Positions 57,022-61,667 of a DNA stretch of 64,000 nucleotides are shown piece by piece (the stretch's first letter is position 1; each line of letters starts with the position of its first letter). The DNA lies in the NCBI GenBank assembly GCA_039105265.1, contig JAPFFF010000006.1, positions 2,976,001 through 3,040,000 of the forward strand. The letters are read 5' to 3'. The notes beneath the pieces are model-generated. The model searched no databases. It was given only the letters and a program-made list of their open reading frames with translations, and was not told the DNA's origin. Made by a program: the position numbers and the translations under genes. Origin of the DNA: Tritrichomonas musculus. Its lineage: Eukaryota; Parabasalia; Tritrichomonadida; Tritrichomonadidae.

Positions 57022-57026
57022 ATTTT
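57022..57026. repeat. Candidate target-site duplication, left (ATTTT)
   Basis: ATTTT directly outside the left TIR; repeated at 61309-61313. In AT-rich DNA a 5-bp match can arise by chance. Mavericks make 6-bp duplications, and a sixth base does not match here. Confidence 0.5.
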
Positions 57027-57341
57027 CATCAATAGCATTTGGAGCGATTTCTGGCCTGCGGCCAAAACCGTTCGCGTTCCGCTCACTATCGCTTCCAAAT
57101 TCTCTCGTGCCTCTGATGTTCCCTTTCAGGTAACATTTCGGCACTCGGATTAGTATAGACATTTTTTTGTTACCTTCTGTACAAACGACTTTCAGCTACC
57201 ACACTTTGGTGATTCTACACTTTTTTCTTTAACGGGAAATTCAATCAGAAACCATTACCGTTTACACAAATGTATCTATCAGATTTTTCTATTGAGCAAA
57301 AATAAAAGACATTTTTTATTACATTTATTTTTACAGTTTTT
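57027..57341 (+). repeat. Left terminal inverted repeat, 315 bp
   Basis: Perfect inverted match to 60994-61308. The outer ~100 bases are GC-rich (CTGGCCTGCGGCC contains a short palindrome). The 36 codons that would extend the helicase frame into this repeat (MSKNKRHFLLHLFLQF) appear identically at the other end and are not coding. Confidence 0.95.
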
Positions 57342-57381
57342 CTTACATGAATTATTTCATCTTTTTTGTTACCAAAAATAT

Positions 57382-57399
57382 TTTTTTTCTGCATACAAA
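57382..57399 (+). promoter_or_regulatory. Shared 18-nt leader before helicase ATG
   Basis: TTTTTTTCTGCATACAAA directly before the ATG. The same 18 bases precede the minus-strand gene at 60171-60458. A T-tract followed by CA and a short A-rich stretch resembles a trichomonad initiator with a very short 5' UTR. The other element genes have related leaders (T-rich tract, then CACCAAA or CAACAAAA before ATG). Confidence 0.6.
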
Positions 57400-58917
57400 A
57401 TGACTCAAGAGGGAAATAGTCAACAGCCGGTAAACAAATATGTTAATTGGAGAGCGTTCATTGATGGACCAAAGAAAGTAACCAAAATAGCAGAGGTAGA
57501 GAGATATGATAATGAAGATAGTCCCCATCCTAGTTCATCAACGATATCATATACGAGCCTTCAGAAGTTCATATGTGAATCTCCAACAGGGAGCGGCAAA
57601 AGCACAGCAATCAGAGAATGGATTATTAATACCATCCCAGAAGATAGTAAATATATCGTTATTGTACCAACAGTAAATATTGCTATAGAGTTCTATAAGA
57701 AAATATGTGCATCATTGGACATTAATGCTGAAGAAATGGATAAAGCTATTAAGGTATGCGTAAAGGAAAATGCATTCACAGAGTTCAGAAAAGCAATAGA
57801 AAAATCTGTACCAATAGTGATAACCACTTATAGCACTGCATCGAAATGCTTGGGAAGTATTATTGAATTGTTTTACACTAAGCTTAAGGACAGAATAGGC
57901 TTTTACAAGCCCGACGGTAAGACAGAATCGAATATAGAAGAGACACAAACGGGAGCCATTGATATATTATATGAATATACTTTAGTCATTGATGAAGCAC
58001 ATTTACTGCTAGAAAATATATCTCTAATAGAAATATGTAGAGAATTCAATAACGTAGCTCTATTTTCTGCCACTGTTGATGATATTTCTTGTCTTAGTGT
58101 TTTCAGGACATTTACTAGGATTAATCCTGAAACATCAATGAAGCATGAAAGAAAAATATACATACATAAACTGAAAGAAACTGTAGAAGAACAACGTAAA
58201 GCCATTGCTGAGCAAGTACTAAAGGAATCAAAGAATTACGATAAGATTCTCATCAAAGTAGAAGATAAGAAAGAATGTGAGAATATCAAAAAGGAAATCT
58301 CTGATACATTCAAGAAAGCATTATACTATTCGGACAAGAAAGAAGTAGAAATATCTGAACAAGGAACATTCATTAATCCATCTGATGTAGATGTCGTTAT
58401 TGCTACTTCTTGTATTCAAGCAGGACAGTCATTAACAGAAAATGTACTTCAGATATTCATACAGACACCATTAGACACAAGCAGCAGTGTGCGACAATTT
58501 ATCGGTAGAAATAGAAATCAGAAATCAGAAACGCATTTATACTTACGTTGCATTAAAGTGCCAGAAGAGAAGTTCGGGTTCAAAATAGCAAATAATAGAT
58601 ATAAAACCAGATTGAATCTATTAAGAGCAAATGCATGGTTATCGATGACGGCAGAATCATGGATGCATAACCTGGAGAAAGAAGGAGAAGTCATTGTAGA
58701 TGAAGCATTATTGAACACCGCTGAGATGAAAATTAAACAGGAAAAGGTATTTGCCGAAAAGGATATGACAAAAGAATTCAGAGGTAAGAAAGAGTTATAT
58801 AAATATTATGGATTGAAGCTTAAAGACCTCCCTCAAGGATTTACCATTAAGTCTAGAGTTCTGAATGAAAAAGGTAAAAGAACAAGAGTGTATAAGCTTG
58901 TTAAGGCAGATGAGTAA
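57400..58917 (+). CDS. SF2 DEAH-box helicase of the mobile element
   Basis: 505 residues from the ATG at 57400. Motif I ESPTGSGKST (~60-69), Ia VIVPTVNIA, Ib VITTYSTAS, II VIDEAH (DEAH at ~198-201), III FSATVDD (SAT ~223-225), IV KILIKVEDKKE, V VVIATSCIQAGQSLTENVLQ, VI VRQFIGRNRN (~364-373). The motif set and spacing recall viral origin-binding-type (UL9/OBP-like) SF2 helicases; exact subfamily is uncertain. It is the only recognisable enzyme in the element, so it probably drives replication of the element DNA, with integration supplied by another source. A longer frame (from 57292) lies inside the TIR and is rejected. It ends in a basic domain (KSRVLNEKGKRTRVYKLVKA). Confidence 0.87.
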   Translation: MTQEGNSQQPVNKYVNWRAFIDGPKKVTKIAEVERYDNEDSPHPSSSTISYTSLQKFICESPTGSGKSTAIREWIINTIPEDSKYIVIVPTVNIAIEFYKKICASLDINAEEMDKAIKVCVKENAFTEFRKAIEKSVPIVITTYSTASKCLGSIIELFYTKLKDRIGFYKPDGKTESNIEETQTGAIDILYEYTLVIDEAHLLLENISLIEICREFNNVALFSATVDDISCLSVFRTFTRINPETSMKHERKIYIHKLKETVEEQRKAIAEQVLKESKNYDKILIKVEDKKECENIKKEISDTFKKALYYSDKKEVEISEQGTFINPSDVDVVIATSCIQAGQSLTENVLQIFIQTPLDTSSSVRQFIGRNRNQKSETHLYLRCIKVPEEKFGFKIANNRYKTRLNLLRANAWLSMTAESWMHNLEKEGEVIVDEALLNTAEMKIKQEKVFAEKDMTKEFRGKKELYKYYGLKLKDLPQGFTIKSRVLNEKGKRTRVYKLVKADE

Positions 58918-58925
58918 AAATATTT

Positions 58926-59114
58926 TTAGCTTAAATCACAGTAACCATAGAAGTATAATTCGTTATTGTCTTCATTGTACACATCTGAATGAACAAATTC
59001 TTTATTGGTCCTTTTGGGCTCAACCAGAGCTGCAATTGTTTTTACGGTAACTGGATTTCTGGCTGTGATGGTTTTTCTATGCTCGACTGAAGCAGGTATA
59101 TTTTTGTTGTTCAT
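58926..59114 (-). CDS. Small element protein, 62 aa
   Basis: ATG at 59114 preceded by a T-tract and CAGGTAAAA, like the other element genes. The first half is basic (EHRKTITARNPVTVKTIAAL), the second acidic and Tyr-rich (NEDNNELYFYGYCDLS). It ends 8 bases beyond the helicase stop, convergent with it. Too short for a fold call, but composition and leader support a real gene. Confidence 0.5.
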   Translation of the reverse strand: MNNKNIPASVEHRKTITARNPVTVKTIAALVEPKRTNKEFVHSDVYNEDNNELYFYGYCDLS

Positions 59115-59198
59115 TTTTACCTGAGAAAAAAAATCTTTATAGATAAAAATAAATTCATTTTATTTCATAACAGCAATTAACTTTTTATTACAACAAAA

Positions 59199-59516
59199 AT
59201 GGGAAAGGAAAAATACACTGATTTATTACATCAAATAGAAAGGGAAGAGTATCTGAATACCAATTTGGCCGACATATGTGAATCAGATGAAGAACTTGTT
59301 AGATTTAATTATAGAGTATTAGAGAAGCAAATAAGAACGTTATTGACATACACTCCAGGAAACACATTACTGCAGAATCTATTAAATCAGATAATACTAT
59401 ACCGAAATGCAGAGATGGAATATACGCCATTGTTCGGCATTTTAGAGCCTTATATGATATTAGGAACGATAGAAAAGAAGCTGTATAAAATAGCAAGAGT
59501 ATTAGATGATATATGA
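59199..59516 (+). CDS. Element protein, 105 aa, helical, unknown
   Basis: Predicted mostly helical and acidic (IEREEYLNTNLADICESDEE; NLLNQIILYRNAEMEYTPLF). Leader: T-tract then CAACAAAA before the ATG. Tandem with the 203-residue gene, 46 bases upstream of it. No family recognised. Confidence 0.6.
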   Translation: MGKEKYTDLLHQIEREEYLNTNLADICESDEELVRFNYRVLEKQIRTLLTYTPGNTLLQNLLNQIILYRNAEMEYTPLFGILEPYMILGTIEKKLYKIARVLDDI

Positions 59517-59562
59517 TAATACAGTTTTTTACATTAAATAAAATTATTTTTATTTCACCAAA

Positions 59563-60174
59563 ATGGCACTCAATAAAATTAAATCTCTTTTGCATAAAAA
59601 TAATGCAGACGTACAAGTCGAAGCACCTAATGAGAACACAATAGCAACTTCAAGCTTCTCTGTTGATTCAGTAGAGAACAGAAATGAAATCGATAATGAG
59701 AGGCAAAACAGGTACCGAACCGAAGCTGATATTAGACACCAAATAATCCCGTCTGCGCCTCAACAGTTTGATTTACAAAACAAAATAAAGCAAAGACTGC
59801 ACTCAGCAGTTGCAACAGACACTAATGCTAGTCTAGAAGAACAATATAAAGCTATAATTAATAAGCAAGAAGAGAAAAGGAAGAACTGGAATGCATACAT
59901 GAGAGGCTATTATGCTAAAAGAAAAAAGGAGCAAAAAGAGAAAGAAAACAAAATCTCAATTGAATTCAAAGGCGTCGAACAAATGTACAATAAAGAAGAT
60001 ATCAAAAGAATTCTATTTTCATACATTAATGTATTTGTAGCAATACTAAATGACAATAAAGAAAACATACCGAAAGAAATGTTAAATGAAATAGATGAAG
60101 ATTTGCATTCAAACGATGTTATTACATATGCTACAGCTGTCTTAGAGGCAGTAAAATTATTGCTAAATAATTAA
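59563..60174 (+). CDS. Element protein, 203 aa, unknown
   Basis: Three parts: a Ser/Asn-rich N-terminus (~1-60), a highly charged helix (~95-130: YKAIINKQEEKRKNWNAYMR, then GYYAKRKKEQKEKENK) that could bind DNA or RNA, and a C-terminal helical domain (MYNKEDIKRILFSYINVFVA; DVITYATAVLEAVKLLLNN). Leader: T-tract then CACCAAA before the ATG. Its stop overlaps the convergent 95-residue gene by 4 bases. A structural or nucleic-acid-binding role is only a guess from charge. Confidence 0.62.
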   Translation: MALNKIKSLLHKNNADVQVEAPNENTIATSSFSVDSVENRNEIDNERQNRYRTEADIRHQIIPSAPQQFDLQNKIKQRLHSAVATDTNASLEEQYKAIINKQEEKRKNWNAYMRGYYAKRKKEQKEKENKISIEFKGVEQMYNKEDIKRILFSYINVFVAILNDNKENIPKEMLNEIDEDLHSNDVITYATAVLEAVKLLLNN

Positions 60175-60458
60175 TGTGCATTTATTTTTGTTAGGTATTC
60201 GTTACAGATATCTATACATTTATCGTTAACGGATTTTTTGTTTACAGTGATAAATGCAATACTATCTTTTCGCTTAATAAATTTATGTTTCTCTAACGGA
60301 AATTCTTTATTCAATTCTTTAACATTTAATTTATTACAGTTATTATTGATTCTCAGTAATCGCCTTAATACTTTTAATTCATTTGCTTTTATTAATTCAC
60401 CTATTAGAGATTTCAGTATTGTAACATCAAAGACCTCAGTGATATTTGTTGTGCTCAT
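60171..60458 (-). CDS. Element protein, 95 aa, unknown
   Basis: ATG at 60458 with the same 18-nt leader as the helicase. The N-terminal half is helical (FDVTILKSLIGELIKANELK), then LRRLLRINNNCNKLNVKELN, then a basic strand-rich part (KHKFIKRKDSIAFITVNKKS) that could be a small winged-helix-like or DNA-binding fold; this is inferred from the helix-helix-basic-strand pattern only. Confidence 0.6.
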   Translation of the reverse strand: MSTTNITEVFDVTILKSLIGELIKANELKVLRRLLRINNNCNKLNVKELNKEFPLEKHKFIKRKDSIAFITVNKKSVNDKCIDICNEYLTKINAH

Positions 60459-60476
60459 TTTGTATGCAGAAAAAAA
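60459..60476 (-). promoter_or_regulatory. Shared 18-nt leader, second copy
   Basis: Read on the minus strand, TTTTTTTCTGCATACAAA sits directly before the ATG at 60458 and is identical to 57382-57399. The identity of a non-coding stretch outside the TIR suggests a conserved element-specific promoter. Confidence 0.6.
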
Positions 60477-60646
60477 TAAATTTTATGTTAAATAATAAAG
60501 AAAAAATATCAAAGAAAAATAATTCAGAGTAAAAGATTCCAGAGAATAATTCAATTTTCAATGCTTCTCTCAGACAAAAATTTTTTGCAACTTTTTCTGA
60601 GGCTGTTGTATTTGAGAGAAATATTTTTTTTTACCGTATTTTAATG

Positions 60647-60975
60647 TATAGTCTAGAGTAAAACCCCCCTACCAAATGGAAAACCCCCTACCAAATCTCT
60701 ATATAAAAGAGTTAGAATCATAATATCATATATACATATAGATAAAATATTCATTTGATAAAATAATTATTATTATTTAATAAATGTTTATTTTATATTT
60801 AGATATTAGTCTTTAAAAATGAAATCTATTCAATTTTTTTATCGAAAAATTGAATAGAAAATGGTAGGTGGGTTTTCCACCAACGTACTTTTTGCCAACA
60901 TTAAAGGCCAAAAATAGGTGAATAAAAATGGTAGGGGGGTTTTCCATTGGTAGGGGGGTTTTCCAGTAGACTATA
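60647..60975. mobile_element. Nested 329-bp MITE-like inverted repeat
   Basis: Outer ends TATAGTCTA (60647-60655) and TAGACTATA (60967-60975) are inverted copies. Each is followed inward by copies of a GGTAGGGGGGTTTTCC motif in opposite orientation (two inverted on the left, two plus a third diverged copy near 60861 on the right). A flanking TA on each side would suit a Tc1/mariner-type MITE (TA target, TAGTCTA terminus). It carries no gene. It lies just inside the right TIR of the 4.28-kb element and has no counterpart inside the left TIR, so it probably inserted later. Confidence 0.6.
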
Positions 60976-60993
60976 ATAAATAATTTATGTAAT

Positions 60994-61308
60994 AAAAACT
61001 GTAAAAATAAATGTAATAAAAAATGTCTTTTATTTTTGCTCAATAGAAAAATCTGATAGATACATTTGTGTAAACGGTAATGGTTTCTGATTGAATTTCC
61101 CGTTAAAGAAAAAAGTGTAGAATCACCAAAGTGTGGTAGCTGAAAGTCGTTTGTACAGAAGGTAACAAAAAAATGTCTATACTAATCCGAGTGCCGAAAT
61201 GTTACCTGAAAGGGAACATCAGAGGCACGAGAGAATTTGGAAGCGATAGTGAGCGGAACGCGAACGGTTTTGGCCGCAGGCCAGAAATCGCTCCAAATGC
61301 TATTGATG
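60994..61308 (-). repeat. Right terminal inverted repeat, 315 bp
   Basis: Perfect inverted copy of 57027-57341; see the left repeat. Confidence 0.95.
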
Positions 61309-61667
61309 ATTTTATTTTTTAAAAAAAATATATAACGAATTTAATTGAAAAATTGAAATAAATTGAGTCTTCAGAAAATCAAACACCACTTTTTCAGGGG
61401 AAATTTAAAAGAGCCCTCAAATATTCTATATTATGCTGACTGTTCAACTCAAATATATATTCGTCCAATTCAAATATTGAAGGCTATTTTAAAAAGTTGC
61501 TAGGTTTAGTTGATTATTTTATAAATTTTAAAACTTTTTCAATTTTGAAAATTTGTAAACTAATCAAAATTTGACATAATTAAATTTCTTTTTATACTGG
61601 AAATTATAAGATAAAAATTTAATATTTTTAAATATAAATATAAGTATTTATAAAATATACCAAAATA
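61309..61667. other. Right flank of element, AT-rich
   Basis: Begins with ATTTT, the candidate target duplication. No gene seen. Confidence 0.45.

What the first reader, a model, noticed from the sequence alone, without database searches (positions are those of the whole stretch)
57027..61308. Helicase-only linear-type mobile element with perfect 315-bp TIRs
Seen: perfect long TIRs, candidate 5-bp target duplication, five compact genes, one SF2 helicase with all motifs, no transposase, integrase, polymerase or capsid gene. Known: Maverick/Polintons have long TIRs but are 15-20 kb with integrase and PolB; transpovirons are ~7 kb TIR-bounded helicase-bearing passengers of giant viruses. Inference: this may be a new class of replicating passenger or satellite element that borrows integration from Mavericks (known to be abundant in trichomonads) or from a virus. 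It is the best candidate in the window for an undescribed system.
Basis: partly seen in the sequence, partly recalled or inferred. Interest (0 to 1): 0.88.

Follow-up and report, generated by a model that had tools for sequence, protein, structure and literature searches.

The report
Helicase satellite wearing Maverick ends
In the genome of a gut protist, a small mobile DNA element that carries a helicase but no integration enzyme has the same end sequence and makes the same target duplication as large virus-like Maverick elements there, so it probably travels as their satellite.

Summary
Window 57027-61308 is a 4,282-bp element with 332-nt terminal inverted repeats (TIRs; first 315 bp identical), one SF2 helicase gene and four small ORFs. 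It is a real insertion: its flanks meet with an exact 5-bp overlap at 29 of 33 empty sites elsewhere in the genome, so ATTTT is a target duplication. The genome is almost certainly Tritrichomonas musculus.

The outermost 40 bp match (34 of 40) the ends of roughly 19-20 kb Mavericks of the same genome, six of which also have 5-bp duplications; further in, the TIRs are unrelated. The helicase family has at least 85 listed loci. None lies in the 49 other tip-bounded units that I could pair. A relative read in full (11.8 kb, 5-kb TIRs, two helicase genes, no integrase) bears the tip of a second, rve-bearing family and also made a 5-bp duplication.

Best reading: helicase-bearing satellites that copy the ends of different Maverick families and are integrated in trans by Maverick integrase. 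Mobility is shown, trans-integration is implied but unproven, and the helicase's role in replication is inferred. New variant of a known kind (satellites); I found no description in an open-licence library.

The parts
57022..57026 (.). left copy of the 5-bp target duplication ATTTT
57027..57357 (+). left TIR (about 331 bp; first 315 bp identical to the right TIR)
57027..57066 (+). 40-bp tip shared with Mavericks (34 of 40), with a small hairpin TGGCC-TGC-GGCCA
57400..58917 (+). SF2 helicase gene, 505 aa, with a conserved C-terminal region
58926..59114 (-). 62-aa ORF, unsupported
59199..59516 (+). 105-aa ORF, found only in this element and as a fragment in its C10 copy
59563..60174 (+). 203-aa gene of unknown function
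60171..60458 (-). 95-aa gene, partner of the helicase in many relatives
60647..60975 (.). two inverted clusters of five iterons (GGTAGGGGG type); candidate origin or protein-binding region (inference)
60978..61308 (-). right TIR with the same Maverick-type tip at its outer end
61309..61313 (.). right copy of the 5-bp target duplication ATTTT

Best explanation
It is a satellite of Mavericks. It encodes a helicase and small accessory proteins, probably to help copy its own DNA, and no integrase. At each end it carries the 40-bp tip of a Maverick family in the same genome, so that Maverick's rve-type integrase joins it into new sites with the 5-bp stagger used for Mavericks. The wider helicase family does the same with the tip of another Maverick family. 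SHOWN: discrete insertion with 5-bp duplication and empty sites; tip shared with Mavericks; the same duplication length in those Mavericks; an rve gene inside some tip-bounded units; the helicase and 95-aa gene form a family outside the listed Maverick-size units; a relative with a different tip. INFERRED: trans-integration by Maverick integrase; replication by a Maverick or host polymerase with the satellite's helicase; any packaging in Maverick particles.
For: Empty sites with exact 5-bp overlap, 29 of 33. Tip 34 of 40 identical to Maverick ends, alignment score 50 against at most 31 in 500 shuffles, and 7 of 7 paired ends (six Mavericks and the element) with 5-bp duplications against 0 of 42 mispaired. 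Tip pattern: 91 matches, 0 in the reversed control. Relative C7:2737176-2749006: no integrase or polymerase ORF, tip with 405 matches and 0 control, duplication TCAAT, 5-bp overlap at two empty sites. rve inside 1 of 14 tip-A and 5 of 36 tip-B units. 0 of 85 listed helicase loci in the 49 other tip-bounded units.
Against: No experiment. rve hits fall in only 6 of 50 listed units and PolB hits in none (best 150 of 797 and best 91 of 1754 candidates), so the Maverick identity of most units rests on size, tips and partly read gene content. Only one relative was read in full. A 40-bp tip is short and could be shared by common descent with no present dependence. The helicase's structural matches are not specific.
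Confidence: 0.75

Rival explanations
1. Deletion derivative of a Maverick: a Maverick that lost integrase, polymerase and capsid genes and kept a helicase gene and its ends.
For: Shared 40-bp tip and 5-bp duplication. Mavericks of this genome carry an internal inverted copy of a tip that resembles the element's tip over 73 bp.
Against: The TIRs share only the outer 40 bp. 0 of 85 listed helicase loci lie in the 49 other tip-bounded units. The helicase and 95-aa gene form their own large family.
Confidence: 0.08
2. Self-mobile element: one of its own proteins (for example the 203-aa one) is an unrecognised recombinase, and the tip likeness to Mavericks is convergent or ancestral.
For: The 203-aa, 105-aa and 62-aa products have no recognised domain.
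Against: The C7 relative shares the helicase and the 95-aa gene but not a detectable 203-aa relative, yet made a 5-bp duplication. Two relatives carry two different Maverick tips. No DDE or other recombinase family was found.
Confidence: 0.1
3. A transpoviron-like or plasmid-like replicon that normally lives outside the chromosome with a virus and was captured by repair or recombination.
For: Size, TIR length, helicase with small genes and a repeat block recall transpovirons (transpoviron features from passages of PMC7031253).
Against: Clean 5-bp duplications at both insertions tested point to enzymatic integration. The helicase is SF2 by Pfam and fold, whereas a cited title seen names an SF1 helicase fused to an inactive polymerase for transpovirons.
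Confidence: 0.06

Closest known systems
Maverick/Polinton elements
   Same: outer 40 bp of the TIR, long TIRs, 5-bp target duplication
   Different: 4.3 kb against roughly 19-26 kb; no integrase, polymerase, packaging ATPase or capsid gene; helicase not found in the listed Maverick-size units
Transpovirons of mimiviruses (features from passages of PMC7031253 and PMC8877843)
   Same: about 6-7 kb or smaller, TIRs of some hundred bp, helicase plus small proteins, repeat block, no polymerase of its own
   Different: chromosomal with target duplications; SF2 helicase without polymerase fusion; partner would be a Maverick, not a giant virus
Non-autonomous DNA transposons moved in trans (recalled, for example MITEs and Ds)
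   Same: borrowed termini, no transposase
   Different: carries conserved genes of its own, and one helicase family bears tips of different partner families
Virophages (recalled)
   Same: satellite that exploits a larger DNA virus
   Different: no capsid genes

Membership tests
Maverick/Polinton | terminal inverted repeats with a family-specific tip | tested here: met
   34 of 40 identities at the tip
Maverick/Polinton | 5-6 bp target duplication | tested here: met
   5 bp at 29 of 33 empty sites
Maverick/Polinton | rve-type integrase gene | tested here: not met
   no hit in the five ORFs
Maverick/Polinton | family B DNA polymerase and capsid or packaging genes | tested here: not met
   no hit in the five ORFs
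Transpoviron | SF1 helicase fused to an inactive polymerase (title of a cited paper) | tested here: not met
   DEAD plus Helicase_C, SF2 fold, no polymerase part
Transpoviron | linear episome carried with a giant virus | not testable with these tools
   no read data
IS481EU of parabasalids | TIRs mostly under 50 bp, single DDD/E transposase, duplications of about 4, 15 or 25 bp (passages of PMC10045372) | tested here: not met
   332-nt TIR, no transposase, 5 bp
Mutator-like element | transposase and about 9-bp duplication (recalled) | tested here: not met
   no transposase, 5 bp
Satellite of Mavericks (proposed) | conserved own genes together with a Maverick tip | tested here: met
   helicase and 95-aa family; two tip families read
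Satellite of Mavericks (proposed) | movement depends on Maverick integrase | not testable with these tools
   indirect only: tip and duplication length

The most novel reading that the evidence does not exclude
Tritrichomonas holds a whole class of Maverick satellites: elements of about 3-15 kb built on a conserved SF2 helicase and usually a 95-aa partner, which adopt the terminal hairpin of whichever Maverick (virus) family is active, are replicated, integrated and perhaps packaged by it, and may burden it as transpovirons and virophages do with giant viruses. At least one landed in a sequence that is also carried inside Mavericks.
Probability: 0.5. Interest if true: 0.86.

Novelty: new variant of a known kind. 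Interest (0 to 1): 0.74.

Why it matters
Mavericks sit between transposon and virus and are estimated to make up about a third of some trichomonad genomes (passages of PMC10120064). A gene-bearing satellite that depends on them would add a parasite-of-the-parasite layer, would point to which Maverick integrases act in trans, and would offer a small natural substrate for studying how Mavericks recognise their ends. Different tips within one helicase family make end recognition directly testable.

Tried and rejected

Rejected readings: assembly artefact (29 clean empty sites); Mutator-like or IS481EU element (membership table); Maverick deletion derivative (see rivals).

Selection in my counts: the 85 helicase loci are those I took from the printed part (161 matches, 85 of 847 candidates scored, list cut), one row per locus, with second pieces of the same gene dropped. 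The tip units are neighbouring +/- tips that I paired by eye from printed lists (one search prints only 100 of 405 places), so some may be mispaired. The ten tips were my choice; near-identical Maverick tips and several tip-like places without a hairpin were left out.

Full report
1. What is there. Window 57027-61308 is bounded by TIRs of 332 nt (99% complementary), the first 315 bp identical, with ATTTT on both sides. It holds a 505-aa helicase gene (57400-58917) with DEAD and Helicase_C domains, ORFs of 62, 105, 203 and 95 aa, and five iterons in two inverted clusters between the 95-aa gene and the right TIR. None of the five products credibly matched an integrase, transposase, polymerase or capsid family. 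The genome has 193.4 Mb in 746 contigs. Contig C8 has the same length (6,195,077) as the contig of a named Tritrichomonas musculus helicase relative, so the organism is almost certainly T. musculus.

2. It is a true insertion. The left flank (200 bp) has 41 places in the genome and the right flank 40. In the 33 pairs where both occur together without the element they overlap by exactly 5 bp in 29, by 6 in two, by 3 in one and by 18 in one; the last four are projected from alignments that stop short. Other copies: C9 (positions 1-1842 of the element, about 93%), C10 (2401-4282 less an internal gap, about 95%), a 64-bp tip on C56 and a 91-bp piece on C13. The C9 helicase copy has stops and differs evenly over codon positions (33, 26 and 33 mismatches), as a dead copy would. 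Relatives of the 95-aa and 203-aa proteins at 97% and 98% occur on short contigs of unnamed origin, so close kin exist elsewhere.

3. The ends are Maverick ends. TIR matches led to seven loci that share kilobases of sequence with each other. Six were read at their edge: five end in ACTATTGATG before unrelated DNA, and the sixth (C4) in a variant of it. Maverick and element tips align over the outermost 40 bp with 34 identities and no further (score 50; at most 31 in 500 shuffles). CATCAATAGNATTTGGAG with up to one mismatch has 91 matches genome-wide and 0 for the reversed control. I formed 14 +/- pairs from that list, the window element not counted: 8 span 18.9-21.3 kb and 6 span 25-75 kb. For seven pairs with both ends held (six Mavericks and the element) all seven have exact 5-bp duplications, against 0 of 42 mispaired flanks. 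That these units are Mavericks rests on an A32-type packaging ATPase in the C41 unit (Pox_A32, 3.1e-6), an rve hit 2.8 kb inside the C5 tip, and the size and TIRs. Against it: no PolB hit among the best 91 of 1754 candidates fell in a listed unit, and rve fell in 1 of 14. Both searches score only the best candidates, and the units' interiors were mostly not read.

4. The tip can form a small hairpin (TGGCC-TGC-GGCCA in the element). On ten tips of my choice 91.5% of cells pair, 2 of 5 pairs show changes on both sides, the covariation score is reached by 0 of 500 shuffles, and slid registers pair 25.5-48.9%. One pair has three unpaired cells, related sequences inflate such scores, and several tip-like places without this hairpin were left out, so it is only suggestive of a shared recognition structure.

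5. The family. The helicase has 58 relatives in the protein collection, three of them named T. musculus, most on short unnamed contigs. In the own genome I listed 85 loci. Ten close pairs all face inward and none otherwise, as expected of helicase genes inside long inverted repeats. The one element read in full, C7:2737176-2749006, is 11.83 kb with TIRs of about 5 kb (98.6%), each with a helicase gene and an AT-rich repeat tract of about 3.6 kb, and a centre with a 95-aa relative (E 2e-17) and a 214-aa gene; I saw no integrase or polymerase ORF. By coordinates only, C7:5097464-5100232 looks like a 2.8-kb member: inverted copies of the first 284 bp of that TIR (95%) around one helicase. Of 150 listed 95-aa hits, 50 lie within 10 kb of a listed helicase (0.9% expected); 48 of 85 helicases have one within 10 kb and 37 do not.

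6. A second tip. The C7 element begins AGTAGTATACGTTAGG, unlike the window element, and has the duplication TCAAT. Its flanks overlap by 5 bp at two uninterrupted paralogues. The tip has 405 matches with up to two mismatches and 0 in the control. From the 100 printed places I formed 36 pairs, spanning 2.2-48 kb, with 17 at 23-26 kb. rve lies inside 5 of the 36, 1.9-2.1 kb from an end in four. Two C45 places match the first 152 bp of the C7 TIR at 86%, with rve about 3.3 kb further in. A further helicase element, on C21, has an exact copy of this tip 368 bp before its helicase match. The sequence that C7 interrupts is multi-copy (40 listed, C7 included); the copies at C1:5168035 and C26:105102 lie inside tip-A units. 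So members of one helicase family wear the tips of two families, and one landed in a sequence that Mavericks also carry.

7. Not a Maverick remnant. 0 of the 85 listed helicase loci fall in the 49 other tip-bounded units (14 tip-A, 35 tip-B; 38 of the 49 are 18.9 kb or longer); two fall in the C7 satellite itself. Paired Maverick TIRs stay alike for 255-260 bp, but only their outer 40 bp match the element.

8. Mechanism. Most likely the satellite is copied with the help of its own helicase and a polymerase of a Maverick or the host, and integrated by Maverick integrase acting on the shared tip. The insertion and the shared end are shown; the source of the integrase, the replication role and any packaging are inferred. 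The helicase model (pLDDT 80.7) has an SF2 core with a further C-terminal part; many SF2 families tie, so its exact role is open.

9. Comparison. It works like a transpoviron or a trans-mobilised transposon, but fails tested markers of Mavericks (integrase, polymerase) and of transpovirons (SF1-polymerase fusion). My searches of an open-licence library showed no description of such elements; subscription papers were not searchable.

Noticed in passing
L014:4117-5300 and the same place in L013, L016-L019: Tip-A Mavericks carry, about 1.15 kb inside their right end, an inverted tip-like sequence that resembles the satellite tip over 73 bp, more than the Maverick's own end does; it brackets a 208-aa gene.
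   Followed up: partly
G000 C11:3359404-3361869, C20:2038776-2040958, C8:4972658-4977806 and others: Small units (2.2-16.9 kb, 12 of 36 tip-B pairs, the C7 satellite among them) bounded by tip B; eleven have no listed helicase. They may be other satellites or mispairings.
   Followed up: no
L056:2343-6020: About 3.6 kb of AT-rich repeat tract after the helicase in each arm of the C7 element, without ORFs of 60 aa or more in its own right.
   Followed up: no
window 57381-57402 and 60456-60480: The helicase and the 95-aa gene share the leader TTTCTGCATACAAA just before the ATG; possibly a common promoter element.
   Followed up: no
G000 C12:3373367, C27:1980495, C2:1172634, C9:3876002 and others: A second helicase group with open frames of about 600-720 aa; relatives such as P0021, P0025 and P0039 repeat the C-terminal region.
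   Followed up: no
L010:7305-9901: The broken C9 copy of the element ends a few hundred bp from Maverick-like genes, including an rve ORF.
   Followed up: no
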